Shown: in pieces, positions 3,399-49,567 of the stretch
Position numbering within the stretch: position 1 is the first letter of the stretch
Layout: every line of letters begins with the position of its first letter
Assembly (NCBI RefSeq): GCF_001638985.1
Contig: NW_017265138.1
Coordinates: 1,302,001 to 1,366,000, forward strand
Reading direction: 5' to 3'
Source: Phycomyces blakesleeanus NRRL 1555(-)
Lineage: Eukaryota; Mucoromycota; Mucoromycetes; Mucorales; Phycomycetaceae
Length of the DNA: 64,000 bases
Notes under the pieces: generated by a model
The model's input: the letters and a program-made list of their open reading frames with translations, nothing else
Database searches by the model: none
What the model was told of the DNA's origin: nothing
Position numbers and translations under genes: made by a program

Positions 3399-6300
3399 AT
3401 GTCCAATAATCAAAAGAAAGACAGTTATGTTATCTGCAAATGTCCAGACTGTACAAAGTTGGATAGCTGTGGAAAGAAACAGAAAAGACAAAATGCACAA
3501 TGACACTATGAGAAACATATAGTGCCTGTTGCCAAAGACGATGCAATGGGTAAATAACAAGAATAATTCGAGCTGTACATGTAAAATTAATGTAAATTAA
3601 TTCATAAAATAGATGTTCCTGAAGAACATTTTGATGACATGGAAGTAGATAGTATTGACAGTGACAATGACAATGATTATGATTACAAGAACGAAGGCAA
3701 AGGCGAATATGAAGACGAAAATGAAGAACAAAACATTGAATTTGATCAAGAAGGTAAGAAAATAAAATAAAATAAATGAACAAAATAATAATTGAAACTG
3801 ATATATATTTTTTTTATTTTTTATTTTTTATTTTTTATATGATTATAATTGTAATTATATTTTTATTTCTACATCTTTACAACAATTATTCCTTTCAAGT
3901 TGACTTACCTTTGTCTCAAGAAGAGTCCATCTTTACTGCCAAAGATACAATTACAGGAGCATTTGTGGTTGATGGTAATGAGATTAAAGAAGGTGATACC
4001 AGTTTTGATTTTGAACAAGAAGAAAACTTTGATGAGACCAGTGGGACCTTGATAGTAGAATCAGGTATGAATTAATAAGGTATAGAAAATTAATCAATAT
4101 ATTAATTTAAACTAACTTAACCTTTGTCTTCATAGTTCGTCCTTCGTCTTTTGATAACATGCCCTTGTATATCCGCTTTGTTGCAGTATTCATTGTCATA
4201 TTTCACTTGATCTTTTTGGTGGAAAGCGGTGGATCGATTCTCATTGAATTTTGTAATACTCTACTGTCTCTCTGTGATATGTCTGGCGCCCTTCCACTGA
4301 CAATCAATAGCTTGAAGCATAAGACAGGATTTAACATGGAAACAGACGGAATGACAGTATACATTGCATGCTCACAATGTCATTCGATTTATCCTCTGGA
4401 AACAAGTCAAAGAGTCTGTACATTTAAGAAATTCTCTCAATCCGCCATTTGCAACAACAATCTCTTTAAAGTGTCAACCGGAAATCGTTCTCTTCCAGCA
4501 ATGGTATATCCATTCAACTCTCTGAAGTACGCCTTGCAACAAAAATTCTCCAAGCCAGATTTCGTGTCCAAAATCAATTTGTGGAGAAATCGTCAAATAA
4601 TTGAAAACACCAAACTTGACATTTTCGATGGTGCAGTTTGGAGTGATATTAAAGACATCAATGGCAGATGGTTTGTTGATGATAGCCGATCTTTAATGTT
4701 GACTCTGAATATCGATTGGTTTCAGCCATTTGATGGATGAACACATTCCAGTGGTGCGATATATCTCTCTATCAACAATCTCCCACGGAGTGAACGCCTT
4801 AAGTCTGAAAATGTCATTCTTGTTGGTATGATGCCTGGGCCGAAGGAAGCAAGCACTGACAGCATGAATCATTACTTGAAGCCACTCGTTGACGAATTGT
4901 TGGAGATGTACATTGGTGTAGAAATGACAGACTCACAAAATAGAAAGATTGTTGTTTGTGCTGCATTAATGTGTGTTGCCTGTGATATCCCTGCCACTCG
5001 CAAAACCTCTGGATTTACTGGCCACATGAGCACATGCGCCTGTCACAAATGTCAACGACAATTCACAACTATAAAGAAGACCAGCAAGCTTGACTACTCT
5101 GGATTCAAGTATAGCATTTGGGTGAGACGCACGAAGACAATGAATCTGGAACACACTGTCAGCTGGGCAAATGCATTGAACAATACTGAGCGAACATACC
5201 TAGAAAAAGAAAATGGCACTCGGTGGTCAGACCTTCATCGATTATCTTACTTTGACCCAGTCCGCTTTACAGTTATAGACCCGATGCATAACCTCTATCT
5301 TGGAACTGCAAAGCGAATGATTCAGATATGGTGCGAGTGTAACTACATCAATGAAAAGAATCAGTTAACTATCCAAGAGCTTGCCAATGGTATTGTTGTA
5401 CCTTGTGGATATGCGCGTATAACAAAGAAGATTGCCAATGGGTTTTCATTCATGAAAGCTGACGAGTGGAAGTCGTGGTGCATCATATACTCTCCATTTG
5501 TTCTGAAGCATGTGCTCCCAGCCAAGAATCTCGAAAATTGGATTTTGTTTGTTGATGCATGCCGCTTACTCACAAAACCTTCGATTAATGACAAAGAAAT
5601 AGACGAAGCCCACAGTAAACTCCAATTGTTTTGTACAAGATTTCAGACACTGTATGGAAAATCGGCTGTGACACCGAATATGCATCTACATCTTCATCTT
5701 GGCGAGTGTGTTCATGACTTTGGGCCAATTTATGCTTTCTGGTTATACAGTTTCGAGAGATACAATGGTTTGTTGAAGAATATCGAAACAAATCAAAAAG
5801 GCGGCTTCGAATCAACAATGATGAAGAGATTTTTAGAGAGAACATACATTGGCAGCTTCATACAATCTTTTGTCAACCATCTTCCCCAGTTCGCAATTGA
5901 CTTTCTGCATCGCATTTCAAATAGTCAAGATCAATTAGCAGCATTGCATCCATCTTCTACTGCCAGTACCTTTTCTCTGTCTGACTTTGTTGAATATTCG
6001 TTAAACCCTCATCATTCTGCTTTGGGTTGTGAGCCATTGCCCCCTTCAGTGTTTCCGATTAAACTCGACCAAAGGATTACAATGTGCAAGGGACATTATG
6101 AATGTTTACTGGAGTTTTACAGACACGCGTATGGCAGTCACGATATTTTTGGCCATTATTCAAACTGCGAGTCTAACCAGATTTTTGTCAATAACCGAAT
6201 TGAGAAAATAAAACGGATATCTCTTCTTGGACAGGAATACTCTTCTGGATCTTATTTCCGCGCCTATTATCTTGAGAATAACAGTGAAGATAAAGCAGCG

Positions 6301-6596
6301 TTTTCTGGCCATATACTGTATTTATTTCAACATTTGATAACCATCAACGAAACTGTCATCACCCATACTTTTGTGTTTGTTGAGTGATACTCTAGTTATT
6401 CTTCGGGGAGTGTTACCAGCCAATGTTAAATAAAGGCATTGAGCTCTGGAATGAACCTTCTTCTGTATTTAATTATGAATGTATTATTCCAGTACATCGT
6501 TTATATTCACCAATCGCAATTGCTAAATATAGGTTTACTATAACTAGTGAATTTAAACGTTTAGTAATCCCTTTACCCCAAAAAATAGAAGCTTAA
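3399..6596 (+). pseudogene. Tnp2-like (CACTA/Plavaka-type) transposase, copy 1, broken
   Basis: Four exons fit well: 3399-3549, 3613-3753, 3900-4064 and 4136 onward, all with GT..AG introns and consistent phase. Exon 1 carries a CxCxxC zinc-like motif (CKCPDC), exons 2-3 are acidic linkers, and exon 4 holds the transposase core. Recognisable blocks are GMMPGPKE (about 4830), CVACDIPATRKTSGF (about 4970), a CACHKCQRQF zinc cluster (about 5035), DPMHNLYLGT (5278), and NMHLHLHLG followed by FGPIYAFW and FERYNGLLKN (5677-5780). These match the Tnp2 family of CACTA transposases; DDE-type DNA cleavage is inferred from that. Breaks are TGA at 3501 (Arg in copy 2), TGA at 4738, TGA at 6385 (Trp in both sister copies) and a frameshift near 6420, after which the C-terminal IIPVHRLYSP block resumes and ends at TAA 6594-6596. 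It is convergent with the gene at 6677-7897. Confidence 0.85.
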
Positions 6597-6676
6597 ATAA
6601 TATTAATAAAATACCACTTTGCACTTTTATCAATTTATTAGAAAATGTTTGATTTATTGTCTTATTGTTTCTTTGA

Positions 6677-7897
6677 CTATGATGGCAGCTTGTTTGCCTT
6701 GGTCTTACTAAGCTGCTTATCTCTTATTCCTTTAAATTTATGCTCGAATGGACAGGTATTATTTTTCTTATCATGAGCTGCCTCATAATCCACATCAAGT
6801 TCATCAACGAACCTATCTCCCTATATGTCAATGTAAGTATTATTACACACCATCCAAAAAAATAGTTTTTTGTACTATACCTCTTCACTTTTCCAGCTTG
6901 GGCGGAATCTCCAAAAAAAAACTCTTTTCTGAGGACGAATCCTGTTCCTCTTCTTCTCTTTCGTCATCACTCTCAAGGTCTGACATGTAATCAGCATGGA
7001 GAATACTGTCAACATTTTCTCCAAAGCTGTTCACAAAGTGTGCCCGATTGGCTTTCAAGGTAGATTGTCTTCTTTCACACGACTATATATAAATATATAA
7101 TATTTCTAATTTAATATCACATCTAGTATATTATGTGCATGTGTTTTTTACCTTTACACGTCGCTGACGAAGACAGGCCCATCGATTCTCTTCCTGCTTC
7201 TTTTCTCCTGTTTTTTTTTCTTGCAACTTTCTGTTGCCAATGTGCCGCACAATCTTAGTTCGAAGAGTTGGCAAGTCCACCTTTTCCCCCTCTTCTTGAC
7301 GACGAAGGTAATTGGTAACAGACTTCAGAACGAGTCTGTTTCCCTCACTGTTTTTATTTTCATTGGTATTGTATTGGTCATACAATTTCTCTTCACTCAA
7401 ATAATCGCGCAACAATTGCTATAATATAAATGTATATTAAATTCTATTTACATAAAAACATATTATGATTACTTACATCCAATGTTGGTTGACGTCCAGG
7501 CGACATGTCTTGCTCAACTGCATTACTAGCAGTGGCTTCAGCTTTCTCAGAAGATGTGTTTTTCAAAACAGTGTTTAAGACACCATTCATGGTATCAAGT
7601 TTCTCATACACATCATGGATGTTACGAGTTCTACCTGACGAATCACCTTCAAGATTCAACCGAGCTCTCTTTGGTGCTAGTGGTCTTTGATTGCTCACTG
7701 TTCCCTGTGAGTGTTGCAACATTATCGTCCTTATATCATTGGTATTTCTTGGTGGGCTTTTTTTTTGATTTTTATAAAAAACGAAAATAAAATTAATATA
7801 AGAAAATTGAAGACTGCCTGGTTTTAATCTACCTTCCCACAGAAGGTTCTTCACCAAAAGCATTGTTAACTGAATTGTTATTGAGATTTCTTGACAT
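6677..7897 (-). pseudogene. RPSWRS-family coiled-coil gene, copy 1 (element companion gene)
   Basis: Five minus-strand exons with clean splice sites: 7897-7833, 7756-7477, 7418-7152, 7082-6881 and 6820-6677. The protein starts MSRNLNNNSVNNAFGEEPS, has a helical segment (IHDVYEKLDTMNGVLNTVL), a basic Arg/Lys-rich region (VRHIGNRKLQEKKTGEKK), an acidic run (SDLESDDE) and the family hallmark RFRPSWKSEE just before the last intron. The last exon begins RFVDELDVDYEAA. Reaching the hallmark requires one extra base in a T9 run (A9 at 6913-6921 on +), so this copy is frameshifted or the run is mis-sequenced. Relatives lie at 23558-24831 and 44875-46002, each next to the same transposase type. Function is unknown; a DNA- or transposase-binding role is only a guess from the basic and coiled-coil segments. 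Confidence 0.65.
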
Positions 7898-8221
7898 TGT
7901 GAATAATAAGAATAGCTTGTTTTTTTTAAATCCAAAGGGTCTATTTATATTATGTTTAATTTGGGCTTTAAGTTTTATTCTTTCTCAGAGAATACCATGA
8001 TCTATTACGTAACAAGAACAGCTTTGAATGTTTCCACTCTTGTTGTGAGTATTTTATGTGTTTCTTTAATTTAATTTTCAATCCATGTTTTATTCTTATA
8101 TTATGTATTAGTATTTGAATAATATGATTTTATACTATACTCTGTTTTTCATATGTATTAGCTGCTGACATAGTACAACTGCGTTTTCTTTCAATTCTAA
8201 GTTACAGACAAAAATTATTTT
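7898..8221. other. Spacer between divergent element genes
   Basis: AT-rich, no frame. It probably contains the promoters of the flanking divergent genes, but no clear TATA box could be assigned. Confidence 0.35.
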
Positions 8222-9690: not shown

Positions 9691-9697
9691 CTTTTGC

Positions 9698-21729: not shown

Positions 21730-22189
21730 CACTGGAAAAGAGGTGTGGTTTTCTTATGTGTAAAACTGTAATTAATTATGTGAAAAGACCAGGTTTTACG
21801 ATGCGATCAGATAGTTTTTACAAGTGTATGAAGCTGGCTTACTCATAGGTGGTAAGACCAACTTTCGAACATAGGAAAAGGTCAGAACAGCAGGATAGTA
21901 AGATGTGTTTGCATTTTCTGTATATGGGTTTTTACCACATGCACTAAAACGGCAACTCAGAATTACATTTTGTTGTAATATATCCTACCACTTTCCGATT
22001 AAAAGAACGATAAATGAAAGATCGATTATACGGATATGCCAGTTTTTACATTGTTTAATTTATGGATATGCCAGTTTTTACAGGGTTTTGTTGTATTTGA
22101 ATTTATTTTATCCAATCTTAGAGACTTCTTCTTATACTGTTTGTTTCCATACACTTCTCCAATCTTTAATTTATTTATAATAATTATTG

Positions 22190-23247
22190 GTTTATTTTGT
22201 TTTTATTAGAAAGAAAAGAATATTCTTAGGTTTATAGTACAGTGGTTATATTTAATATTCAGGAACGTTCTGGCTAGTGTTCTATCCTTCATACAATTTG
22301 AAATAGCCAATGTTCTGATAAAACAAGTATTCTCCAAACAATATCTCTCAGAGAAAAGCCCAGTTGTGTGTTGCTTGCTTGTAAATGGTTGTTCTATGAA
22401 ATTAGAAAAGTGTTAGCTGTTTGAACAAGAAATTGTGGATATTAAGAATATATATATGTAATTATGCTTGCAATATAATAGCTTACCAGAGACAAAAAGA
22501 AAAGACGTCATGAATGCGAACCATAGTACTCAATATACTTTATTTGGCTATAAAAATGCTGAAAAAAATTTATTTTTTGTGAACTGTGTGGTAGAATATT
22601 TCATTTACCTACCCGAAGCAAAAGGATTTATTTGCAGACCAAGAGAGTACATAGGAGACGCTAATATTGTCTTCAGTAAATGATATACATTAATATACAA
22701 AATAAATAATATTGTTATATGTACAAAAAAAAATTACCATGTCAATGACACTCGTATGAAATGAAAGTTCTTGATTCGCGATGTGCTCATGAGAGGGAGG
22801 TTCATCTATAATAGAAATTATGTTAAGCCGTGTGCTTATTAAAAAGAGATAGATTGAAATAAAATAAAATATTACCATGTTCATAACCGTGTTTAATAGT
22901 AGAGAGTAATTTCGGCGATATGGCCTATACAAAAGAAAGGAAAAAGTCAGAATAATTTTATAGGATGATGGCATAAAGTATATTTACTAACCTTAGCTAA
23001 TCCGAATGGACATTGTGAAGGGGATGCATCAGAAGGTAACAAAACGAGAGTGTCTGTAGTAATAGAAAACAATTATTATCATTTTAGTTATATATATATA
23101 TATATAATATTAAAGAATAAGATATCTTACCAAGAAAATCTGTGAATATAATAAATGTTGGAAAGAGAGAAAAGAGAGAAAACTTGTAAATGAAAAAAAA
23201 AACAAAAAGAACAAAAGACCAAAGGGCCAAAAGGCCAAAAGACAGAA
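22190..23247 (-). CDS. Tiny-exon hydrophobic gene, copy A (putative)
   Basis: Starting near an ATG at about 23247, a Phe/Leu-rich exon ends at 23131 before GTAAG. Further exons with GT..AG borders are 23053-22992 (LVLLPSDASPSQCPFGLAK), 22924-22876 (ISPKLLSTIKHGYEH), 22805-22738 (EPPSHEHIANQELSFHTS) and one containing SWSANKSFCFG at about 22660-22620. Reading phase is kept across the exons I could check. Locus B keeps the same borders and a similar SWSAKKSFAFG peptide, which argues for coding conservation rather than chance. The 3' exons down to about 22190 are uncertain. It lies divergently next to the RPSWRS gene. I do not recognise the family; a secreted or membrane product is inferred only from exon 1. 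Confidence 0.5.
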
Positions 23248-23473
23248 ATCATATATTGGATTGAGTTGAAAAAAGCATGTTCAAAGCCGATTTGCACCCC
23301 GTTAATTCCAGGAAGTATTAATAGAGATACGTGTATTAAAGAAATCCTGAGTATTTACAGCAACAAGTGTAATATAATAAATGGGTTCTTGCTTTTACTT
23401 TTACTATCTTTCCATTAACTACACTTTATTGTTTCGCTTAACACCTAACTTCTTTTGTATGTTAATAACACTC

Positions 23474-23481
23474 TATATATA
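23474..23481 (+). promoter_or_regulatory. TATA box for RPSWRS gene A
   Basis: TATATATA in CTCTATATATACAATG, about 80 bp upstream of ATG 23558. Confidence 0.45.
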
Positions 23482-23557
23482 CAATGAATAGATATATAAA
23501 ACAAATATAATTAATAATCAACTTACGTATAACATTTTATTAGATAGCTTTCAGACC

Positions 23558-24831
23558 ATGGTTAACAATCGTCAGTCCATTGCCCCTGCTCCATCCCCGG
23601 AATATACTGAGCTTTTAAGAAGGCTCACCGCTATGGAGGAAAGTCTCAAGACCATGGATTCAAACATTGGCATTGTCATCAAGGGGAACAAAGATTCATT
23701 GGAAATACTTGATAGCGTTGCCGATGCCTCTGGAGAACTTCTTGCAGTTATTGCTCCTACCACTATACCTGCTCCTGCTTCTGTCCCTTTCGCAGCTTCT
23801 TTCATTGGTTCTACTCTGGATTGGTATATAACACCTTCTGAGGCTTTTTTTGGTATCTCTTCTGCTGCTCCTTCTGTTGCTCCTTCTGTTGGTCCAGTGG
23901 TTCTTACTGGTGCAAACGCTGGTGAACTTAGTAAACAGGATCGCACTAGAGTTTTAGTAAGTGTTGAGATGTACAGTAGTTCATCAACATAATATCTCAC
24001 ACTAAGTATAGGCTCTTATCCGAGGAGAGTTGAAGAAACACAACTTCAAATCAAATAAGCCAGAACTAGTTGCAGCTAACGACAGCAAGCACAGTTGGGA
24101 TGTTAATGTTGATTACAGACTTCTACCCAACAGACAGCTGATGCATGACCTTCATGCATACCTGGCCCCAAAGGTTGTTGGGACTAGTGTTTGACAGGCC
24201 AATATTAGCGATTGTATCTACACAAACTTTTGTGGAACGAGACGCCAAGTCAAGGAATCCTATAAAGCGCGCAAAAAGACAAATTCTCGGTCAAGAAAAG
24301 CAGGTCAAGAGACCGATGTATGCTAGAAGTATATTTTGATTGCAAATTAAATGTATTCATATTAATACATTTATAAACTAGCATTTTGACCGTCGCGAGC
24401 TGACCTACCATACATTCAAGGCTGAAATTGATGTGAAGGTGGGTAAGAGCTGCGACGGACTCTTACAGAAAGAAGCAATGTCTGAGGGCAAATCTGAAGA
24501 CGATATGCCTGGAGTCTCAAGCAACTGTGCGATTCGTACAGTGCGTCCAAGTTGGAGAAGCAATGAGGTAATTTCTTTTGTTTACATTATTGTATATAGC
24601 TTTTTTTTTGTTTTTTTATGGATTTAAATGAATCAGAACTTTGATTAATCACTTATTTGTATTTAGTACAATCACTTTCTTGCGGTTGTTAATGATTTTA
24701 TGCGTAATCGCATGGACTTCAATTCGCGTCAGATGTTGAAGAGGCCCTTTGGTATAGATGCTGTTCTAGCAGTCCCGCCTAGATTGACGTCCCTTCTCCC
24801 TCACTGGGCTTTTAGAGATGAGTTTCAATAA
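23558..24831 (+). pseudogene. RPSWRS-family coiled-coil gene, copy A
   Basis: Four exons fit in phase: 23558-23956, 24012-24317, 24382-24567 and 24667-24831 (TAA). The protein has an N-terminal amphipathic helix (YTELLRRLTAMEESLKTMD), an Ala/Pro/Ser-rich low-complexity linker, a central domain (KHSWDVNVDYRLLPNRQL, then CIYTNFC), a basic cluster (KARKKTNSRSRK) with one Cys pair, the conserved MSEGKSEDDM, and VRPSWRSNE exactly at the last exon junction. TGA at 24192 replaces the Arg found in copy C (GTDMR), so this copy is interrupted once. The gene is convergent with the transposase at 24962-28073, ending about 130 bp away. No known domain is evident. Its repeated linkage to the same transposase suggests an element-encoded helper, regulator or DNA-binding subunit, but that is inference. 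Confidence 0.7.
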
Positions 24832-24961
24832 ATTTTGTTTTCTTATCCTCTACATCCTCCACATCCTCCATCTGACAATGATAAACATACCAACAAATAT
24901 AAACACAATGATTATTCTTTTCTGTGTGCCTTTAAAAAAGGGAGTTATATTTTATTATTTT

Positions 24962-27900
24962 TTAAATGTATTGTTTTTTTAGCAAAGGAATGACCAGCAT
25001 CTTTTTTACTTTTCTGCGTGTTGTGTGCTCAGCAGTTGCTACTTCTAACATAATTCTATGCACTGGCAATACACATTGGAAATCGTCAGGAGAAAATGTT
25101 GGAAAGCAGGTTTCAACATGTTCGTACTCTCGCGATTGATCATTTTTGGGTGTGTACCATTTGATAAATGCAAAAGTATGTTGAGAATTGTGAAGAAGTT
25201 GTGTTGGGCGGCGATGGGTGCGAAGCAAGGGAGTAAGGGATGAAGAGGTGGGTGGAGGAGTGAAAGAATGGGTGAAAATGTACTGTATTTGACCTGTGTA
25301 TGCGATGATATGCTCACCAGTACTTCTAATGAACTTTGCTTGTACAAGAGAGCCATGGCTTCCAGATTCACCTTTACCCTTGTAGACCTGCCCAAGGATG
25401 TTGATGTATTTCAACAGGGTAATTGTATTGTCAACAAAGTATGGTGATTCTGATGCTTGTTGAAAGTGAACTAATTGTTCATTGTTGTACGCAACTTTAT
25501 AGTATTGTAAGAGATGAACATAGTGAATGTCACTCATTGTGGTAGCGGATTTTAATGATAGAGGGAATGTGGAAGGAGGGAGAGGTTCGTTGCCTTTTAC
25601 AAGTACATTTGGATCTTCAGAAGCCTCGACAAATGACTGTATGTGGAAGGTACGTTGACAGATGGATGGAATGGTGGTGGGTGTAAAGGAAGAAGTGAGT
25701 TTGGTAAGGAGAGGAAATGCAGATGTCTGGTAGGTACTCTGAAGGAAACTGTTGACAAGATCGTCTTTGTGCACATCTTCAATAAATTTCTTCATAAATG
25801 TTTCTTCAAACCCGATCTTCCTGTTTGTCTTCAAATTTTTTAACAACCCGTTAAACCACTTGAACCCAAATAGCCAATAACCATACACTGGTCCAAAATC
25901 ACGAATTGTATCTCGAAGATGGAGGTGTAGGTGCATATTACAGGTGAGGATTTCGGCGTTGTACAGCTCGTCACATCTGGTGCAAAAAGTTTGAAGGAAC
26001 TGATGGGCAGTGTTGACTTCATCGAACGTGATTGTTGGCTTGATCAACAGACAGCATGCATCAACAAAGTTAATCCAGTTTTCGAATCTGTATTTTGCAA
26101 GAACATCTTTCAACAGAACTGGCAAGTATACGAGCACCCATGACTTCCACTCGTCTGCCTTCATATACGAAAACTGCTTTCCTATTTTCGAGTTCAAAGA
26201 GGTGTATCCACCAGGCACAATCATCGTTTCTGCAGTCTTCTGCATTGCCGCAAAATTGCCATCTTGAATGTCTTCGTCTTTGATCAAATGATCCATCAAT
26301 CTTTTAGGCGTTCCCAGGAATAAATTATGCATGGGATTGATGATCGTTCCACATACTAGATCAAGGTATCCAAGGCGATGCAACTACGACCATCAAACAC
26401 CATTTTTGACCTTCAGCCGATGCCTTTCTGAGGGGGTACAAGCACTTTCCCACTCCTCAGCATGCAACCTGTTCTCTACACCGCCACGAAGCACCCACCA
26501 AGAGAAGTCAAACCCACGAAAGTCAACATTGACACCGTTTTCCAAGCGAGGGAAATGTCTGTTGCACTTGTAACATGCGCATGTACTGTTGTGTGAGGTG
26601 AACCCACTTGTCTTTCTTGCTGCCGGGATGTCACAGGCCACCATCATCAATGCGGCACAGACGCGGACACCACTAGGACACTCAAAAGTTGGGATTGCCA
26701 GTCCCTCATACAATCTTATCAGATCATCTACCATAGGCCAGAGATAATGGTTTATCTCTTTGGATTTGGGTTCCTTTGGGCCAGGCATCAATCCTACGAG
26801 ATGTGTGTTCTCTGGCTTGTATCTTTCATTGCGAGGCAGATTGTTTACTACCAGGTATATGGCACCAGTCGAGTGCATGACATTATTGAAAGGTTGAAAC
26901 CAGTCGATGTTGAGAGTCAACATTAATGAACGCAAATCCTTTGTGAATTGCACACCATCTTTGTTTTTGAGCTCCTTCCACATGGCACCATCGTATATGT
27001 CACACATCGTATCCACCATCTTCAGCTCGTGATTCCAATGTCTAATTTTATTCTCGAATCCTGGACAAAGAAAAACATTCGTAAAGTATTAACAATGGAC
27101 TGGTACAAGTATGAACGCTTGGCCACCAAAGCACCCGATGCTGATGTTTTCGTCAATTGGCAGTTGCAAGACAAGCATGCACCAAGCTTTACAAAATTGC
27201 AATGAGATGGGACAGATGCACTTTCTTCGTACACCTTGTGACAATCCAGACACACAACAAATTTCTTTATGCCTTTGGTCATGGCTGAGAAACCTGTCAT
27301 GCGCTGAAGACCAGGAAGGCTCAAGGGCAGTTGGAAATCCTGCTCGTAAATTGTTAAAAGCTTGTTGATGAACTCGATCAAGACAACGGCGCCCTTGTCA
27401 ACCACATAGCGGGAAGCAAACATCACCATAAAAGTAGCAATGAACCTGTGCACTGGGTTCTGGGCATATTGGGGGTGGCAAAAGGGTCAATTATAAAAAA
27501 AAATTAATGCTTTTTTTTTAAATTTTTTAACACTAACTGACCTTCACTATTCAATTCATTGTTGTCGAGCTCAATAACATCGTCTTCGCTTTTGTCTTCA
27601 CTGATTTCATTGCTGTTGCTTCCACTGTCATCATTGTCACCATTGCTGATCGCGTCATTAGTAACGGAAACATCTTCAGTGTCAGACATTGAAGCTCCTT
27701 CCCAAACAGGTGAGTTTGTCTGAGTGTACAATTCTTCCAAGGCTCCGGGTTGATGGGTTAAGATAGCTACATTTAGAATATAACACTTGGTTAATATCTA
27801 ACAGTATCTGAATTAAATAAACCTTACGTTCATCATCGACCTCCATCATATTTCTTTGGGTAGACATGTCTATTACAACACGTTATTTCATGGATTACAA

Positions 27901-28073
27901 TACAATTAAATAAATTCAAATATTGCACCCCTTTCACATCTTATGGCACTTAGTCTTGCCCTTTTGTTATGACGTTGAGCAGTTCTTCTGGCAACAAAAC
28001 TATAGCCGAGATCGTTCTGACTACATCCAGCACAATGGCACTTTTCGTTGTAGAGTTCAGGAATTGTGAACAT
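24962..28073 (-). pseudogene. Tnp2-like transposase, copy A, broken
   Basis: Exon 1 starts at ATG 28073 and has the zinc-like CHCAGC followed by RTAQRHNKRA. Two small exons and an acidic exon (SGSNSNEISEDKSEDDVIE) lead to the main exon at about 27470. Core blocks: LVGLMPGPKEPKSKEINHYL (about 26800), CDIPAARKTSGF with CACYKCNRHF (about 26630-26560), NPMHNLFLGTPKRLMD (about 26335), NMHLHLHL and FGPVYGYWLFGF (about 25930-25850), FAFIKWYTP and VLPVHRI near the C terminus, ending at 24962. Defects: one-base deletion near 27440, frameshift near 27060, TGA 26393-26395 (Arg in copy 1) and TAG 26384-26386 (Gln in copy C). From 26383 to the end it is a single 473-codon frame. Confidence 0.85.
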
Positions 28074-28283
28074 AATGTTTATTTATTTTTACTTTGAAGT
28101 GTTAAGAGAAAAAGGAAACAAGTACAACGTTTACTAAATTTACTATGTCTTTATAATGAATTGTTATGTCTTTATAATAATAATAATAAATAATATTTTT
28201 GCCTGTTGTATCCAAGCCAATAGAAAACCGGAAAACAGTGTTTTCATCTTGAACACACAAAAAAAGCTGAGATGAAAAAATAC

Positions 28284-28379
28284 CCCAGATTTTCTATTGT
28301 TATAATTTAACTTTGTACATGGTAATTCCCGTATATTTTTCTAGTGAACTTCCTTTCTTTTTAATGGTTTGAAATGTAA
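28284..28379 (+). repeat. Left part of a 46-bp-unit repeat, ending in TAA target duplication
   Basis: From about 28348 the sequence AACTTCCTTTCTTTTTAATG..TTTGAAATG matches one 46-bp unit of the dispersed repeat. It stops at TAA (28377-28379), and the unit resumes at TAA (40730-40732) after the Harbinger element. Confidence 0.65.
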
Positions 28380-37684: not shown

Positions 37685-39675
37685 CACTGGAAAAAAGTAG
37701 GAAAATACTGACGTGTATATATGGACAAACAATACTAGAATAACGTGATATAGCCTAGTTGATATTTTTTCCACTAGATTTTAAGGTCATCTAGCACTGT
37801 ATGTGCGAGACTTACAAACACTACAGTATATGTAAATGGGGGTTCCACAAGTAAGGTTTGGTAGCACTTTCGATATACTTGTTATGCTTAATAAATAAAT
37901 ATATTTAAAACTACAGATTTATCTTGGTATTCTTGACACAGAACAGGAAAGGTCAAAGATGGATTACATCATGTATATTGCTCCAATGGTTTATCTGTAC
38001 TACACCTCACCTTTTCTGACCACCTTTACTGACCACCTATACTGACAGTTCTTTAAAATCTCCAATCATCAACAGCAAAAAAACACGTCTTTAAAACTAT
38101 GGACCAGTAATATGTTCTTTATTTATTTGGTTTCCCATTCTTATTAGGTTAGTAATGGTTTATGCTTTTATTTTTATTGGAAAGAATAGAATGTTTCTAG
38201 GTTTCAAATCTAATAAAGCTATTCTACATCCTCAGCTACTTCTTGCTCGGCAAGCTTGTTATATTTGGGATGAAAAATTTTCTACAAAAAACAAATACCT
38301 GAAGAAAATGAGGTGCTCATTACCTTTTTTTAGGGGTAAGAGCAGTACTCTTTGAGAATAGATAAAACATTAGTGATGGGAGTGTGTACGTGTTTTATAC
38401 TGCAAATTTTATGCACTAATTAATACTTACATTGGAAGTACCCAGTACAAATGAACAAACAAATAAAACATTTACAGTAAAGCATGAGATTATGATTTCT
38501 TTGACTATAAAACGATAGAAAAGAATTAATTTTTGTGAATTGCATGATAGAATAATTGATTTATATACCAAAGGCAAAGGATTTCTTTGCAGACCAAGAT
38601 ATTATCTGTAAAGCAGTAATATCGTCTCTAGTAGAGAATATACATTAATATACAGTATAAATAATATTATTGTATATATAGAAGTAAATAAAAGGCTTAC
38701 CATGACAATGACGGTAGCATGGGATAGAAGTTCTTGAGGAATGTCACGTTTGTAAGAGGGATGTTCATCTATAATAGAAATTATATTCAGTTAGATAAAT
38801 ATTAAAAAGAAATAGATTAAAATAAAATAGAATATTTGTGTCAATATCTGTGTTTGATTGTAGAGAGTATTTTTGGCGATGTGGCCTATATTAAAGAAAG
38901 AAAAAAGTCAGAATGATTGTATGGAATGATGGCATAAAGTAAATTTACTAACCCTGGCTAATCCAGATGACTGTTGTGAAGATGGCGCATCAGAATGAGA
39001 CGAAAAGTGAGTTTCTATGACATTAAAATATATTGTTATTTTTTAGTTATACATAAAGAAGTATATATTTCTTTTAAAACAAAGAAAGTGTCTTACCATA
39101 AAACCTTGCGAGTGTAAAGAGTGAAGAGAGAGAAACAGAGAGAATACCTATGACAGACAAAAAAATTAATTCTTTTGTTCTTTGTAAAGAAGTATTTTGA
39201 ACCAAAAACAATCTTACCAGAAAAATTTGCAAATATAACAAGAATTGAAAAGATAGAGAAAAGAGGGAAATAACAAAAAACGAATAAAAAAGTAAAAAAA
39301 AAATCTTAAAAAAAAAAGTGTGTTTAAAACAAAAGACTAAAATAATTTCATCAAGTCACAAAGCAATATGAAAACCGATTTACATTCCAGTCATTACAAG
39401 AAGTATTAATAGAGATTTGCATATCAAATATATTTTGAATTATAAAATAAAAAAGGAAACAAGAGTGCTACAAATATTTCATTTGATCAGTTCTAGAGTA
39501 AACCAAAACGTATTTTTTATTTTTTTTTATTTTATTTTTATTTAAGCCAATAGAATATATCAAAACTACACCCCCAACTTGATAAAAAAAACTGCTGAGA
39601 TGAAAAAAAATCCTGACATATCCACTATGATCCAACTACCTGGACAATATGTTAATTGTCCTTATTTTTCCAGTG
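37685..39675. mobile_element. Non-autonomous CACTA-like element B inside LINE ORF1
   Basis: Left end CACTGGAAAAAAG at 37685, right end CTTATTTTTCCAGTG at 39675. Flanking triplets ATG and GTG differ by one transition. Subterminal sequence (GACAATATGTTAATTGTCC; GCTGAGATGAAAAAA) matches elements A and C. It lacks the transposase and the RPSWRS gene but keeps a copy of the tiny-exon gene. Confidence 0.8.
38155..39320 (-). CDS. Tiny-exon hydrophobic gene, copy B (putative)
   Basis: A Phe/Leu/Ser-rich exon ends before GTAAG at about 39218. Following short exons align with copy A: THFSSHSDAPSSQQSSGLAR (about 39015-38955, before GTTAGTAAA), one with EHPSYKRDIPQELLSHATVI (about 38770-38702, before GTAAG) and one with SWSAKKSFAFG (about 38620-38590). 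Intron positions agree with copy A where checked. The most distal shared block (38155-38340, TTTATTGGAAAGAATAGAATG) corresponds to 22200 and 42970. Being the only gene left in element B, it either hitchhikes or serves the element in some way. Exon 1 start and last exon are not certain. Confidence 0.45.
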
Positions 39676-40679: not shown

Positions 40680-40729
40680 TATGAGCACTTAAATTAATGC
40701 TAATGTAAATGCTACTGCTGCAGATGCTC

Positions 40730-40915: not shown

Positions 40916-40920
40916 TCTGA

Positions 40921-41739
40921 TTAGACACTTACTAACAAACCACACTGATATCTTCTTAATGCTGTTCTTTTTCTATTTGCAAATGAAGTCGTTCTGCAGA
41001 ACTTACAGACCTGGTTGCAAAAATAGTTTTTTACTATATGTGCAAGATCACTTGTAAGTATGCTAGCAGATTGGGGTTTGCTCTGCAAATATGCAGTTAG
41101 AGTCAGTGCAAGACCATGGTTATAGCCACCTGTAAAGTAGCTCATAAGAACCCATTCTGGCTTTGCAGAATTTGCAGTTACTTTTATTCAGTCACTACTG
41201 CTGAAGTTCTGCTTTCTCAGATACTCATTAATCAATTTCTATGAGAAAAATGTTAGATGTCTTGGCCATTATTTTCAAATCAAATCTTACTAAGATTGCT
41301 GTGTGTCTCTTTCCAGGCACATAAGCTTCTTCTATCAATGATAAAAGACCAGTGACAGCTTCAACACCTGATGTAACATTGTATCTGAAAGCAGTATTCT
41401 AAGCAACAGTTTGATCAGAAACAATATTTGCTACTGTCTCCTGAAGACGAGTTGTGATATCATTGGACTTGGTGATACTGGTGACCATGCTTGCAATTTG
41501 GTTGGTAAAACTTTTCATCTAAGCATTAAGACTGGTCAGCATTATGAGAACTGGATTGCTTACATTACCATCAACATGTCTACCTGCCAGTCTCATGATA
41601 GATGTATACATAACCAATGCTAGACCAGTGTTGTTGTTAGGCATGATGTTATGTGCAATATTCACATGCACAGGGTTATTCTCAGAGGGACTGTTAGCAC
41701 TATGAATGAAATTGGTGTGGCAATATTACTAATTTGCAT
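40921..41739 (-). pseudogene. Decayed unknown gene
   Basis: From ATG 41739 (MQISNIATP) the minus strand shows NFIHSANSPSENNPVHVNI, then LALVMYTSIMRLAGRHVDG, a helical segment (TNQIASMVTSITKSNDITT), VTSGVEAVTGLLSLIEEAY and RFDLKIMAKTSN. A shifted frame then gives GLALTLTAYLQSKPQSASIL and a Cys-containing tail (CKFCRTTSFANRK), ending at 40921. At least four stops (one TAG after LTSLNA, one after SDQTVA) and two frameshifts are needed. I do not recognise the family. It lies between the 46-bp repeat and the CACTA-type element C. Confidence 0.5.
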
Positions 41740-42028: not shown

Positions 42029-42516
42029 CACTGGAAAAATGACCTGACATACGTATATGTAAAGGCGTAGTTACTTAGGTGTCAAGACAGGGTTTAACAT
42101 TGAGTCCGGATATATATCACCATGTAACAAGTTTGTCTTAGCACCATGTGCCATGACCAGCTTTACATATGTTTGGGGTCAAATAAAAATGACGGAGATA
42201 TAGTTCTTTAGCACTTTTGGTGTGTTGATCTGACTTGGGATATTGACAAGAGTTTTTTGAAATCAAAGTTTTATTTTTATATGTTTTATATGGAGCTTTA
42301 AAGGTGAATAATATATTTATTTTCGATCTTGACACAGTAGTATAGTTCAACATTACACCTCTTTGTTATCTTTTATATCCAATTAAATTCAATACTTGAG
42401 CAATTCTTTGGATTCTGAACCATAGTATAATTCAATCGCTTTTATTTTAATTTCAGAAATTATTTTATTGGTATAGTGTATTTTTCTTATAATTGACAAA
42501 AAAATTGTACTCCATC

Positions 42517-42671
42517 ATTTTTTTTAAGACCTAAAAGTGCTGTCACAAATGACAAAACTAAACATGTTTTTTATTTACTTTGTTAAAAAACAGTTTCTCT
42601 ACAAAGTAAACAGAAAAGATATTCAGTTTTGTCATTTCTGACAACACTTTTTAGGTCTTGAAAAAATGCGG
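42517..42671. mobile_element. Foldback (MITE-like) element inside element C
   Basis: AAGACCTAAAAGTGCTGTCA.. near 42527 and its reverse complement near 42660 form about 38-bp arms, with a shorter TTTACTTTGT/ACAAAGTAAA pair inside. Exact borders are unclear. Confidence 0.6.
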
Positions 42672-42959
42672 TATTTGAATTTAATAGCAGAGAAAGAGAA
42701 ATATTGACATTATATTTTTCATTTATAATGGCAGACAATAAGAATAAATCCCCTAAAATAGAAATATTGTGTATTACTCGGTGTTTAAAAGATCTTTTGT
42801 TGTGAATATATGAAGTTGTGACTGCATAAAGTTCAATATTTAGGATTTTTTAAAAAATTGGTAGACATTTAATGTCATTTTCATATATCGGCATTTGAAA
42901 TAAAAAAAACTTACACAAATCTTGAAATTTGCGATTATTAAGAAAATAAACTATAAAAG

Positions 42960-44625
42960 TTTATAATAGTATTTATTTGGAAAGAACACAATGTTTCTAG
43001 AACTATAACAATCTTATAGTATTGATTTATTGGATATCCGTTATTGCTTCTACTGGTCTGCTTGATACTGTTTGAATAGAATAATTATCTACAGAAAAGA
43101 AATATCTGAAAATATAAAAAAAAACAGACTGTTTGTTGAAATATAACAGACTTTAAGAAGTATAGACAAATTATTAGCTATGTGTTCTGGGTACTACATT
43201 TAATGTAGTATGCTTTTACATTTTGTGTACACTTTTATACTTATATTGTAAATATTGGAAAAGAGTGAGCAAAAAATAGATGTTGCTATTGCTTATCCAT
43301 GGCGTTCCTTATGATATCTTTCACAATAAAAACAATAAAAAACATTAATTTTTGTGAATTGAATAAAGTAATAAATAATTTACATACTAGTAACAAAAAT
43401 ATATATTAACAGAGATAGATCAACTTTGTAACTACTTGATAGAACTCTAGTGAAAAAGAATAATGTTTGATATTAAGACATTATAATCTTAATATAATTA
43501 AAAAACAAAATAAAATAGTGATCCTTATCATGTAATATCATTTACAGCTGTATAATGTAAGGGAAATCAAAGACAGGATCAACAGTGCTCATCTATAATA
43601 AGACTTTATTTTAGTAAGATACAGATCAAAATAATATATATATATACTACCTTGATGTTTTTAACCAAATTCATTTGTAGCAGTTATTCTTGATGGTCAA
43701 GTCTGTAATAAAAAAAAACAAGAAGTGTTGTGGTGGTTGAAGTTGAAGAAGTTTTTAAGAGGAAGAATTGAAGATTTGAAATTAGGAACGAAGATTCGTG
43801 AGAACTTGTGTAGGTTTTGTTTATTGAGAAAGATTTTGTATCAAAGTTTGACGAGGTTCCTACACTGAACTACTACTGCTATTTATATTGTTTTGGATTG
43901 GGAAAATTATATGACTGGGGTCAGGTAATCGATCCTATCTGAGCCTTAATCAGAGCAACGTGATCTTAGGATAATTAATGTATGATTAATTATATAAATG
44001 TGTGTAGTCCCAATGAAGTATTAACATCGAAAGTAAATGTGTTTATGAGTTATAATTATGCTTATAATAATCCACTGATGTATCCCATATTATGGTGATA
44101 TCATCATATGAAATATAATCACTATCATGCATGCTAAACCTGTGTGTTAAATAATAAAGTAATCGGTAGACACCTTTGACTGAAATAGCTGAGGCCTTAT
44201 ATTATTTCCTTCAGACTTATTCTCAATTACAGCAGTAGTCAATACTCATTTACAACAAGAAGGATTTTTATAGATATCAATTTTGCAAAATATAATATTG
44301 ACCTTTGTTAATCTGGACAGCAATTGTGAAATGAATGCATTTAAATGAGAGCAAACGAGTATCTATTATGATAATAAAAGAATGTATTAATTTTTATTGT
44401 TTATAAAAAAGTATTTAATAAAGAAGTATGTTACCAAAAAAAAGCCACTAATATAATAATGACAAGCGTTGGAAAAGAGGAAAGGAGCAGAAAAGAAAAA
44501 AGAAAAAGATGTAAATTTTTTTTCCGCTTTTGAAACAAAATATCAAAAAGCTTATCCAATAAACAATAGCAAAAAAAAACTGAAAAGAGGTGATCAATTG
44601 AGGCCAAAAAATGTATCAAGACCAA
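42960..44625 (-). pseudogene. Tiny-exon hydrophobic gene, copy C, interrupted by a solo LTR
   Basis: The strongest hydrophobic exon of the family (HLFLFSFLLLSSFPTLVIII, then LVAFF) ends before GTAAC at about 44432; its frame opens without an ATG at 44625. Downstream homology to copies A and B is seen at about 44330-44300 (TTAATCTGGACAGCAATTGTG), 43600 (CTCATCTATAATA) and 42970-43120 (TTATTTGGAAAGAACACAATG), but exons are decayed. A 532-bp solo LTR lies within an intron or exon at 43726-44257. Confidence 0.4.
43726..44257. mobile_element. Solo LTR, 532 bp, with 5-bp target duplication
   Basis: Begins TGTTGTGGTGG and ends TTTACAACA (TGTTGT/ACAACA inverted termini). AGAAG precedes (43721-43725) and follows (44258-44262). 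No internal retrotransposon genes are present, so recombination between LTRs has removed them. Confidence 0.85.
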
Positions 44626-44685
44626 TTTGCATCTCAGTGTTTCAAGAAATTGTCTTTGAAGTGTTCCTGAACTATCACTACCACC

Positions 44686-44693
44686 TATAAATA
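44686..44693 (+). promoter_or_regulatory. TATA box for RPSWRS gene C
   Basis: TATAAATA, about 185 bp upstream of ATG 44875. Confidence 0.35.
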
Positions 44694-44874
44694 CTTCATA
44701 TTTCTACTTGCAATTCAATTTCACTTACTCTTGGTTATATTATCTCAAAAAATATATGTTGCAAGCTTACTGTAATTTACATAACAAAATAAATACATTA
44801 TCTCTTATAAAAGAGAATAAAAAAGAAAAAGAACTAATATTAACAATTGAAAATATTATGATGTATTACAGATA

Positions 44875-46002
44875 ATGTCTACCTCTAACCGCATACTCGC
44901 TCCTTCTCTTACTAGTACTGATGTCCAGTTGCTACAAGCTTTGAATGCGATGAAAGAAGAGATGAAGGCCATGAAGAATAAGATCACATTGACGGATACA
45001 CGAATCGGTGTAGTGATCACCAGTAACACAACTGCCATTAATGGCATTGATGCCTTGTCTGCCCTCCCAGCACCTGCGCATGTGCCCACTAGTGTTGCAT
45101 CCACTTCTGCTGCCCTTCCCACCACCAAATCAGGTGATACTAATGCTGTATTTGTAAGTATAAAGATACAAAAAACACTTGCCAATCTTGTTGCTAATTA
45201 AAATATGATAGGGATACATTCATGGTTATATGTGGAACCCAAAGCTAAAATCAAGAGACCAAGCAGAAATCCAAGCGAACGCCATAAAATCAAAGTGGGC
45301 AGTTAATGTTCGTTTTGATCGCTCTCCAAATAGAGAGTTAGTCAAACAACTCTTGTATTACTTGGAAAAGAAGTTTGCTGGCACTGATATGAGGACATGC
45401 GACCTTCATAAATGTATATACATAAACTTCTGTAGTAGATGTTGCCAGCAAAGGGAACTTCTGGAAACAAGACGAGCCTTGAATACTAATTCAAGAAGAT
45501 CTGGCCATAAAACTGATGTAAACTATATTTTCAATTTATACTAAATAATAACAATTAGAATATTAATTGTATTGTCTTTTTCCTTTAGAACTACACTTGC
45601 CGTTGCCTTGCTTATGATGCTTACAAGGCTGACATTTATCTCAAGATGGGTCAAAACTGCTCTGGACTGACCCAAAAGTTGGTCATGTCTGAAGGCAAAT
45701 CAGACAATGATATGTCCCCCCTCAGCCAAGAAATGAGATTCGTGTTGCTCACCCAAGTTGGAGAAGTGACGAGGTAAACCCTAACAGTTTTCTTTTTTGA
45801 ATGATGCCAGACTGAATGTTAATATATGTTTATTACTTAGCTTAACAAATTCATTACAGAGGTTGACTCGTTTGTTGTTAAGCAATTGGGTTCAAATTCC
45901 CGTCAACTGCTTAAAAGAGTTTATGGTAGAACAGTGGAATCAACAGTCCCAATTGATTTAGATCCTGCTCTACCTCAATAGGCTCTTAAATATGGGTCAT
46001 AA
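44875..46002 (+). pseudogene. RPSWRS-family coiled-coil gene, copy C
   Basis: Exons 44875-45153, 45212-45517, 45589-45773 and 45841 onward. The N terminus forms an amphipathic helix (LLQALNAMKEEMKAMKNKI) followed by an Ala/Pro/Thr linker. The central part (KWAVNVRFDRSPNRELVKQL, CIYINFCSRC) and MSEGKSDNDM match copy A. The hallmark HPSWRSDE at the end of exon 3 is reached only if the C6 run at 45716-45721 had one more C, so there is a frameshift. The last exon (FITEVDSFVVKQLGSNSRQL) meets TAG 45979-45981 where copy A has Trp, and the homologous end is TAA 46000-46002. Gene structure, phases and position relative to the transposase are the same as in copy A. Confidence 0.7.
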
Positions 46003-46141
46003 ATAAAACTCATTTTTTGTCATTTTTTTTTCTTTTACTCTCAAAATTTCTTAACACATATGTATTGTTCGCAACGTATATAATAAGACTACATTAGCTT
46101 ATGTATTGAAATTTTTTATTAAAAAAGAAATGTATTAAATA

Positions 46142-49100
46142 TTAATTGTATTGTTTGTGTGGTAAAGCGTTGACAAGTATTTTCTTATTATTTGTGCTGG
46201 TTTTATAATCACATGTTGCAACAACTGATGATATTTGATGTACTGGCAAGATGCATTCAAAATCACACACAATAAAATCTGCACTGCAGATGTCAACACT
46301 TTCCAAGTCTCTTGAATGGTCATGCTCAATCTGGAACCACTTAACAAACACAAACACGTGTTTATTTTGATAAACAACACGTGTTTGGAGCTCTGTGTTG
46401 TCTACTGGTGGAGTGAAATAGTGCAAGAATAGATACTGAATTTGTCTAGTGTATGCCAACCGATTATTGCCTTGACTTCCAAGAAACAGAGATTGAACAA
46501 ATGAGCCATGACCAGAAGCATATTTGCAGCCTTTGTAAACCTGACCAAGCAAATTGCTTGATTTCAACTTTATAGTTTGGTTGTCGACAAAGGAGAATGG
46601 AGAGGAGGGATGCTGGTAACCTTCGAGATTTGGCATGCAGTATGCGACTTTATAGTAATCAAGCAAATGAGGATAGTCGCCATCACTCATTGCTGATGGG
46701 GGTTTGATATGGAGAGGAAATGTGGATTGAGGAAGAGGTTCATTGCCAAGGACTGGAAGAGAAGGGTTTGAGTATGCTTGGATGAAGGCCAATAGTCTGA
46801 ATGGGCGCTGGGGAAAAGTTATTGTATTTTTTGAAGTGGAGGGTTGAGCTGTGGCAGTAAGCTTGGTGAGAAGAGGAAGAAATGATACTTGGCTTGGGCA
46901 CGTGACAGCAGCATGAACGAAATCACCTTTGAATGTATCTTGGACGAAACTATTCATGTATGTAACCTCAAAGGAATCTTTTCTGTTCATATTCACGTTC
47001 TTTAGCAGACCATTATATTGCTCAAACCTGAAGAGCCAATATCTATATACTGGTCCAAAATCATGGATGGTCTCGCGAAGATGGAGATGTAAATGCATGT
47101 TACAGGTGAGAATAGTTGGAGTGTAAATACACTGGCACTCAGTACAGAATTCTTGAAGAAATTTATGGCCATCGTCAATGTCAGAGAACGTGATGCTTGG
47201 CTTTACTAATTGGCGGCAGGCATCAACAAAACTGATCCAATTTCTGAACATTTCAATTGGCAGGACGGCCTTCAACAAGATAGGCAAATACACTAGCACC
47301 CAGGACTTCCATTTATCAGCTTTCATGTATGGAAAGCCCTTTCCGATCTTCGATTTCAACACCACGTAATCCATTGGCACCACCATTGTCTCTGCCATTG
47401 CTTGCATAGTAGCTAGCTTTCTATTGTCTATCAGTCCTTCTTTTATCCACCGCTCCATCATTCTCTTTGGTGTCCCCAGGAATAAATTATGTATGGAATT
47501 GATGATCGTTCCACGTACTAGATCAAAGTATCCAAGGCGACGCAGCTGCGACCATCAAACACCATTTTCGATTTCCAACTGATGCCTTTCTGAGGGCGTA
47601 CTGTCACTCTTCCACTCCTCAGCATGCAACCTGTTTTCCAGACTGCTACAGATTTTCCACATCAAATAGTCAAACCTACTGAAGTCGACCTGATTGGTAC
47701 TTGGTAACCTGGTAAATTGCCTCACACATCTGGGGCATGCACAAGTACTGTTGTAGGCAGTGAATCCACTGGTCTTCCTGGCAGCGGGGATGTCACAGGC
47801 AACTATATGTAATGCAGCATGTACATTAATACTGGCTGAGCACTTAAAAGTTGGGATGGTTATCCCCATAAACAATGCAGCAATTCATTGACTATTGGCT
47901 TTAAATAGTGGTTGATCTCTTTGGTCTTTGGCTCCTTAGGACCAGGCATAAAACCAACAAGGATGACGTTTTCAGACTTAAATCATTTCTCACAAGGCAA
48001 GTTATTTATAGCAAGGTAGATAGCTCCAGTTGAATATGTAACGCCATCAAATGGCTGGAACCAGTCAATGTTCATTGTTAGCATCAATGAACGAGATTCA
48101 TCCACAAATGATACGCCACTTTGGTCCTTTAGCTCCTTCCACATAGCACCATCATAGACGTCACATAGTGTATCTACAACCTTAAGCTCTTTGTTTCATT
48201 GTCTGATTTTTTGCTCAAACTCAGAATGAAGAAAGAAAACTTGTAATGATCTCTGGATAGAGTTGTAGACGTATGATTGCTTGACTACCATAGCACTAGA
48301 AGATGAAATCTTCATCAATTCACAGTTGCATGGTAATTGAGAACCATGCTTTTTGAAGTCGCAATGAGTAGGGTGAGGCACATCTTGTTTGTGAGCCTTG
48401 TGGCAGTCTTCACATACAACAGACTTCTTAATACCATTGACATAATTAGAAAAACCAGTCATTCTTTGCAGGCCAATAAGACTTGTTTGTAATTGGAAAT
48501 CTTTGTTGTAGATCTTGAGTAACTGATTGATAAATTCAATCAATATGGTGGCACCTTTTTTAACAGGATAACGCGAGATAAAAAGAATGGCAAAGGTAGC
48601 AATGAACCGATGGACAGGGTTTTCAGGCATGTTAGGAGCATCAAATGGGTCTATTTAAAATTAACAAAAATAAATTAGAACAAATTTTCTTTAGGTGTGT
48701 TTTTAAGAAAACAAAATCATTTATGACTGATCTTCATTAAAAAACTCTTCAATGTCTGTCTCAACACCTTCTTCTTCACCACTGCCAGAGTCAGAGTTCA
48801 TGTCTCTTTCAATATCAGAGCCATTGCCATTGACCTCGCTGATCTCATTGTCTACCGAGACTTTGTCAGCCATCATGGCAGCATTCAAATCAGGTGAGTC
48901 GGCCTGATTATCTATTTTTTCAATGGATTCAGATTAACAGGTTGGGATATATACAAATGTAGTTAAGTTTAGTTTATTGTTTATACTGGTTTTCAAATGT
49001 CTTTTTTCTTACACTGAGTATCAACGTCCATCATTTCTTCTTCTTGCACAGCTGTATTTCATTAAAAAAAACATAAAAAAAAACATAAAACATAAAAAAA

Positions 49101-49311
49101 ATTATTATGCAGTAAATAAAAATCAGCTCTGAAAAAAAAACATACAGTTTGCAAATCTTTTAGCTGCATCAGATTTCTGCACTCTCTCGAGTTTTTCTTT
49201 TACAATATGATGCTCAGCAGTTCTGCCTGATACCAAAGAGTATTGTAAGAAGTTTCTGCTGCATAGAGTGCAATGGCAAACAACATTACGACGCTGGGTA
49301 ATTGAAGGCAT
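46142..49311 (-). pseudogene. Tnp2-like transposase, copy C, broken
   Basis: Exon 1 starts at ATG 49311 and ends at 49146; it has the zinc-like CHCTLC followed by SGRTAEHHIVKEK. A small exon (VQEEEMMDVD) and an acidic exon (SDSGSGEEEGVETDIEEF) lead to the main exon at about 48654 (ENPVHRFIATFAILF). Core: VGFMPGPKEPKTKEINHYL (about 47945), CDIPAARKTSGF with CACPRCVRQF (about 47790-47720), NLFLGTPKRMMERW (about 47480), NMHLHLHLR and FGPVYRYWLFRF (about 47105-47030), VFVFVKWFQI and ILPVHQI. End 46142. Defects: TGA 48196-48198 (Trp in copy A), TGA 47983-47985 (Arg in copies 1 and A), a frameshift near 47870 and TGA 47555-47557 (Arg in copy 1). Confidence 0.85.
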
Positions 49312-49567
49312 TTTAAGTATTTTATGTGTTTTTGAGTTCTTATGAATAAAAAAGGGAATGTGTAACATGTACTTTATTTAGAGCGACTTTATAGTCGAAA
49401 AAAAAATAATAATTTATCTTAATATTTTGTTAACCAATGAAACAAAGTAAAACTACATCTTTGATCTGAACTTCAAAAAGCACACTGAGTGGAAAAAAAT
49501 CACTCTTTCTGCACATGTGTCTACCAACCTGGCCACATTGTTAATTAGGGCGGTTTTTCCAGTACAA

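What the first reader, a model, noticed from the sequence alone, without database searches (positions are those of the whole stretch)
3399..49564. A recurrent three-gene CACTA-type module: transposase, RPSWRS coiled-coil protein, tiny-exon hydrophobic protein
At 3.4-9.0, 21.7-28.3 and 42.0-49.6 kb the same three genes occur in the same relative order and orientation. The transposase and RPSWRS genes converge; the RPSWRS and tiny-exon genes diverge. A fourth element (37.7-39.7 kb) keeps the tiny-exon gene only. Tnp2-type transposons usually have one or two genes, so two conserved unknown companions suggest element-encoded helper or regulatory functions.
Basis: partly seen in the sequence, partly recalled or inferred. 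Interest (0 to 1): 0.85.

Follow-up and report, generated by a model that had tools for sequence, protein, structure and literature searches.

The report
Jumping gene with two conserved companions
In the fungus Phycomyces, a large family of cut-and-paste jumping genes carries, besides its transposase, a conserved helper-like gene of a protein family without known function and a third spliced unit whose product is uncertain, much as some plant jumping genes carry a second protein.

Summary
The window is from Phycomyces blakesleeanus. The recurrent module is real: it is the anatomy of complete CACTA-superfamily DNA transposons with CACTGGAAAAA termini, 3-bp target duplications and about 6.7-6.8 kb, holding a Tnp2 transposase, a convergent "RPSWRS" gene and a divergent spliced third unit. 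Element C (42029-49564) has both ends; B is degraded; D (37685-39675) is an internal-deletion derivative whose junction recurs at two other loci; A has transposase and RPSWRS gene but no detectable third-unit homology.

RPSWRS is a genuine element gene: four exons open in three subfamilies, dN/dS about 0.32 (D versus E), and 77 of 94 listed hits lie within 5 kb of a convergent Tnp2 hit (random 1.5%). No Pfam or confident structural match was found; relatives occur in Mucor saturninus and Phycomyces nitens. Best reading, inferred: a TNPA-like accessory protein.

The "tiny-exon hydrophobic protein" is less secure. The unit and its splice sites are conserved and 34 annotated proteins match it, but introns are as conserved as exons, dN/dS is 0.43-1.32, and the frame is not kept in subfamilies C and D. 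It may be a fast-evolving small protein or a spliced non-coding RNA.

The parts
42029..49564 (-). Element C: CACTA-type element with both ends, TIR CACTGGAAAAA and one-base-changed TACTGGAAAAA, TSD CAA/CAA; carries two insertions relative to L069 (about 43723-44257 and 42474-42953)
46142..49309 (-). Element C Tnp2 transposase (cysteine/histidine-rich first exon, acidic exons, main exon 46142-48654); window copy has stops and frame breaks, main exon of 837 codons open in sister copy L069
44875..45999 (+). Element C RPSWRS gene, four exons, window copy broken; open in L069
43245..44444 (-). Element C third (tiny-exon) unit, interrupted by an insertion at about 43723-44257
37685..39675 (-). Element D: 1,991-b internal-deletion derivative (bases 1-251 joined to 4911-6694 of the full element); flanks ATG/GTG, so the TSD has one mismatch
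38427..39252 (-). Third unit in element D
21730..28346 (-). Element B: degraded element that by inspection interrupts a Helitron helicase reading frame; termini CACTGGAAAAG and CACTAGAAAAA, no matching TSD
24962..27486 (-). Element B transposase main exon (broken), upstream exons to about 28082
23558..24828 (+). Element B RPSWRS gene (P0005, PHYBLDRAFT_142422, on a contig of the same length as the window's)
22485..23165 (-). Third unit in element B; same open frame as subfamily F copies L071 and L072 in exons e3-e6
3399..6387 (+). Element A Tnp2 transposase (frame split by a TGA at 4738-4740)
6677..7935 (-). Element A RPSWRS homologue, diverged, with a frame break just before the RPSWKS motif
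40924..41713 (-). Relative of the RPSWRS family of another type (P0032-like), outside elements C and D, not seen next to a listed Tnp2 hit of its own

Best explanation
These are autonomous-type and deletion-derivative CACTA-superfamily transposons of Phycomyces blakesleeanus. Shown: TIRs, 3-bp TSDs, a Tnp2 transposase whose frame is open in some copies, a co-mobilised RPSWRS gene under purifying selection between subfamilies, and a conserved third unit with conserved splice sites. Inferred: the transposase cuts and joins the CACTG ends; the RPSWRS protein, with a predicted N-terminal coiled coil (oligomerisation) and a mildly basic, helical middle followed by a small alpha/beta part, acts as the TNPA-like partner that binds element DNA near the ends to assemble the transposition complex and/or to repress the element's promoters. 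The third unit is transcribed divergently from RPSWRS and gives either a small fast-evolving protein or an RNA that tunes element expression. Non-autonomous derivatives that lack both genes, such as window D, are mobilised in trans.
For: Termini and TSDs: TAT/TAT in L070, ATA/ATA in L069, CAA/CAA in window C. PF02992: 150 scored of 558 candidates, all 150 listed over the cut-off. RPSWRS-Tnp2 convergent pairs 77 of 94 listed hits, offsets mostly near 1.35 and 1.7 kb, versus 1.5% for random positions. RPSWRS open with four exons in subfamilies C, D, E; dN/dS 0.32 for D-E over 321 codons and 0.31 for D-C over 217. Homologues in Mucor saturninus and Phycomyces nitens at 35-43% identity to P0001. 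Predicted long helix 19-73 (mean pLDDT 73.5); 19 K/R versus 13 D/E in residues 146-220. One deletion junction shared by three loci. In maize both TNPA and TNPD are needed for Spm transposition, and TNPA-type proteins differ strongly between elements (PMC2613891, passages; PMC8195511, passages).
Confidence: 0.6

Rival explanations
1. RPSWRS is a repressor or host-interaction protein (for example countering silencing) rather than a transposition helper; it is co-mobilised because it lowers the element's cost or helps it escape host defence.
For: Conserved and co-mobilised; no fold or motif tells helper from repressor. TNPA itself is described as positive and negative regulator (PMC2613891, passages).
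Against: Found open in the three subfamilies whose DNA was read (C, D, E), as expected of a core function; no evidence for a host target.
Confidence: 0.3
2. The third unit is a protein-coding gene: a rapidly evolving small protein, in some subfamilies with a C-terminal hydrophobic segment.
For: 34 annotated proteins match it, all named Phycomyces blakesleeanus in that search; exon lengths of e3-e5 are kept apart from one three-base indel; B copies and L071, L072 share one open frame over 79 codons; annotated D-type and P0053 C-termini resemble each other.
Against: dN/dS 0.43-1.32 with little or no third-position excess; introns 69-92% identical, exons 47-85%; stops in the B/F frame in subfamily D and in L073, and stops in all three frames of exon e4 in the C copy L069; annotated models join exons differently in different subfamilies; within subfamily D, shared non-CpG changes 23 non-synonymous or stop to 5 synonymous against a neutral 2.4, with a partly wrong exon model.
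Confidence: 0.45
3. The third unit is a spliced non-coding RNA or a cis-acting regulatory region; what is conserved is intron sequence and splicing, not a protein.
For: The intron between e3 and e4 is 88-92% identical across B, D and F, more than any exon; splice sites persist in C although exon e4 there is not open; the spread deletion derivative keeps the whole unit.
Against: Annotators called proteins repeatedly; no convincing conserved RNA structure: five-sequence consensus fold with an unfavourable covariation term, and no Rfam match over a family's gathering score. No transcript data were available.
Confidence: 0.45
4. The companions are host genes caught once and carried passively.
For: No functional test exists here.
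Against: Same Tnp2-RPSWRS pairing across subfamilies whose transposases differ by roughly 20-50%, counting window A, and purifying selection. No single-copy host version was recognised in the capped lists, but none was searched for specifically.
Confidence: 0.05

Closest known systems
Plant CACTA elements En/Spm (TNPD + TNPA), Tam1, Tgmt* (PMC2613891, passages)
   Same: Tnp2-type transposase, TIRs, target-site duplications of fixed length, a second element-encoded protein without similarity between element families, internal-deletion derivatives
   Different: Here the second gene is separate and convergent, not an alternative transcript; its protein has no PF03004 match; subterminal repeat arrays are weak; a third divergent unit is present
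CNIRT6, a CACTG-ended CACTA element of Cryptococcus neoformans (PMC12810828, passages)
   Same: Fungal, TIRs beginning CACTG, about 7.5 kb, CACTA superfamily
   Different: The passages seen describe one gene of about 6.9 kb; no companion of this kind is mentioned in them
Phycomyces blakesleeanus sequences (PB) in the CMC transposase tree of PMC12810828 (figure legend seen)
   Same: Probably transposases of the same or related elements
   Different: I could not read Repbase entries; whether companions are noted there is unknown

Membership tests
CACTA (EnSpm) superfamily | TIRs starting CACTA/CACTG | tested here: met
   CACTGGAAAAA at both ends of L070, L069 and window D and, with one change at one end, window C
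CACTA (EnSpm) superfamily | 3-bp target-site duplication | tested here: met
   exact in 3 of 5 elements examined (L070 TAT, L069 ATA, window C CAA); one mismatch in D, none in B
CACTA (EnSpm) superfamily | Tnp2 (PF02992) transposase | tested here: met
   window A and B over the Pfam cut-off; the piece of C given to that call lies downstream of the domain and did not match; L069's own place is in the PF02992 list (C4:1617933)
CACTA (EnSpm) superfamily | DDE catalytic triad of CMC transposases | not tested
   no reference alignment at hand
TNPA (PF03004, Transposase_24) for the RPSWRS protein | match to the Pfam family | tested here: not met
   no PF03004 match for the 8 RPSWRS-type proteins scanned (2, 6)
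TNPA-like role for the RPSWRS protein | binds subterminal repeats | not testable with these tools
   only weak candidate repeats seen
TNPA-like role for the RPSWRS protein | second conserved element-encoded protein beside the transposase | tested here: met
Protein-coding gene (third unit) | purifying selection on codons | tested here: inconclusive
   dN/dS 0.43-1.32 over 42-79 codons, few sites

The most novel reading that the evidence does not exclude
A lineage of Mucorales CACTA transposons runs a three-part system: transposase, an accessory protein of a previously unnamed family, and a transposon-encoded, multiply spliced regulatory RNA whose introns, not exons, are under constraint and which even a spread deletion derivative retains.
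Probability: 0.25. Interest if true: 0.75.

Novelty: new variant of a known kind. Interest (0 to 1): 0.5.

Why it matters
The CACTA accessory proteins that I know of are described from plants, where they are not conserved between element families. A fungal accessory family that can be followed over dozens of copies, several subfamilies and at least three species would let co-evolution of accessory protein and element ends be tested. If the third unit is an RNA, it would be an unusual regulatory part for a cut-and-paste element.

Tried and rejected
Rfam search of four loci: one match below its gathering score (mir-67, E 0.5), dismissed; this also gave no support to a snoRNA-host-gene idea. RNA consensus fold of A5: covariation term unfavourable. 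Subterminal repeat search: weak. My first reading that the third unit cannot be coding was softened after annotated proteins were found. The within-family shared/private test had little power and used a partly wrong exon model for the third unit. Plavaka transposases as partners of the P0032-type relatives: 3 hits, none near those loci. Fold searches for RPSWRS gave nothing confident. Papers searched; nothing in these listings was recognised as describing the companions, but I saw passages of only four papers, and Repbase is not held.

Full report
SOURCE. The window lies in a 53.5-Mb genome in 60 contigs. Its own genes match public Phycomyces blakesleeanus NRRL 1555(-) proteins, one of them on a contig of the same length as the window's (P0005, 2559881 b).

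ELEMENTS. Comparing the window with fetched copies gives sharp boundaries. L070 holds a 6,694-b element (3040-9733) and L069 one of 6,798 b; both begin and end with CACTGGAAAAA and are flanked by TAT/TAT and ATA/ATA. Window element C runs 42029-49564 with CAA/CAA (one TIR base changed). Window element D, 37685-39675, joins bases 1-251 to 4911-6694 of the L070 type; the same junction occurs at two other loci, L027 (which keeps only bases 213-251 of the left part) and L036, so the derivative has spread. B has recognisable termini but no duplication. A's termini were not found.

TRANSPOSASE. PF02992: 150 of 558 candidates were scored and listed, all over the cut-off. The subfamily C copy L069 has an open main exon of 837 codons; L070 has one in-frame stop in its main exon.

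RPSWRS GENE. It is read from the strand opposite to the transposase. Four exons are open in D (L070, 323 aa, one residue from annotated P0001), E (L076) and C (L069). D versus E: 321 codons, 60% amino-acid identity, dS 0.99, dN 0.32, ratio 0.32, differences by codon position 91/85/138; by exon the ratio is 0.36, 0.26, 0.24 and 0.47. D versus C, exons 2-4: ratio 0.31 with dS 1.70; E versus C was saturated. Window element A has a diverged homologue: two of its exons are found in a scan of window frames at E 0.0014 and 0.0046, and the joined pieces score E 5.6e-14 as a single target.

LOCATION TEST. One search had 187 matches from 150 of 405 scored candidates, and its list was cut. I kept the 94 listed matches that begin near the start of the query (exon 3) and dropped the exon-4 pieces. 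Tnp2 places were 274, copied by hand: 150, 109 not already there, and 15, out of some 560 candidates. 77 of 94 have a convergent Tnp2 place within 5 kb, with offsets mostly near 1.35 and 1.7 kb; random positions gave 1.5% (the control used 30 contigs, the lengths of two of them approximated). By my own grouping: D 25 of 27, E 23 of 29, C 14 of 15, G 11 of 12, F 4 of 8, P 0 of 3. None of 12 first-exon loci of P0032-type relatives lies within 5 kb of a listed Tnp2 place (nearest 5.7 kb, which is window element C); because the Tnp2 list is incomplete, this is not proof.

DISTRIBUTION AND FOLD OF RPSWRS. The first search gave 33 proteins, 31 named P. blakesleeanus, one Mucor saturninus and one Helobdella robusta on a 1,634-b contig, probably contamination (only the 7,998 candidates sharing most words were scored). 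A second search, with the Mucor protein, gave 10, including P. nitens and two more of M. saturninus. Whether these lie beside Tnp2 genes could not be seen. No Pfam family at its cut-off. The AlphaFold model (22 sequences, mean pLDDT 73.5, pTM 0.48) has a long helix 19-73, a helical middle, and a strand-strand-helix-strand end; the motif (263-268) lies at the end of the second strand and before the helix. No confident structural neighbour.

THIRD UNIT. Of 43 matches (40 of 196 candidates scored) four second pieces were dropped; 29 of the other 39 lie within 6 kb downstream of a same-strand Tnp2 place; some of the exceptions, such as window D, are deletion derivatives. A profile from B, D and F finds the unit in subfamily C (E 3e-37 for L069) and in 26 of the 28 loci L039-L066, but not in A. 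Splice sites are shared across B, C, D and F. 34 annotated proteins of 70-191 aa, all named P. blakesleeanus, match its exon-joined product. The annotated D-type product (P0063) skips exon e4 and ends with a hydrophobic stretch and a charged tail; models of other subfamilies differ. Against coding: exon identities (47-85%) do not exceed intron identities (69-92%); dN/dS 0.43-0.59 for B-F pairs over 79 codons and 0.53-1.32 over 42 codons, with little or no third-position excess; stops in the B/F frame in D and in L073; no open frame through exon e4 in C. For coding: exon lengths are kept apart from one three-base indel, and annotators found it repeatedly. I leave it open.

WITHIN-FAMILY TEST. 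Among up to 27 D-type loci (18-27 per column), RPSWRS changes outside CpG: private 131 non-synonymous or stop to 42 synonymous, shared 37 to 16, neutral expectation 2.65; so near-neutral decay. Third unit: private 44 to 17, shared 23 to 5, neutral 2.37.

LITERATURE. In maize Spm, TNPD and TNPA are both needed, TNPA binds subterminal repeats, and TNPA-type proteins differ between elements (PMC2613891, passages; PMC8195511, passages). CNIRT6 is a CACTG-ended CACTA element in Cryptococcus (PMC12810828, passages). EnSpm elements are reported in all Mucorales sequenced in PMC7928374 (passages).

VERDICT. Real, well bounded, ordinary in superfamily, unusual in its conserved companion without known relatives of known function and in its third unit.

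Noticed in passing
window 40924-41713 (-): A P0032-type relative of the RPSWRS protein; 12 first-exon loci in the genome, none within 5 kb of a listed Tnp2 place. It may belong to another transposon type.
   Followed up: partly
window 19904-21730 and 9890-12040 (+): Helitron-like N-terminal domain and a PIF1 helicase; by inspection element B interrupts the first Helitron's helicase frame at about 21730.
   Followed up: no
window 34536-40424 (-): Reverse transcriptase (PF00078) with an upstream zinc-knuckle-like frame (named by eye); element D lies inside the upstream frame of this LINE-like element.
   Followed up: no
window 31812-32546 (-) and 15123-15809 (+): Plant_tran (PF04827; PIF/Harbinger type, recalled) and a DDE_3 match below its cut-off.
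   Followed up: no
P0029 (Helobdella robusta, 1,634-b contig): A leech record carries a Phycomyces-like RPSWRS gene; probably contamination of that assembly.
   Followed up: no
L067 3045-3221: Weak third-unit match (E 1.5e-6) near a Tnp2 hit of another subfamily, which may mean that the unit is older than subfamilies B, C, D and F.
   Followed up: no
window 18656-19148 and 61920-62421: Inverted pair of about 500 b, 82-89% complementary, 43 kb apart.
   Followed up: no
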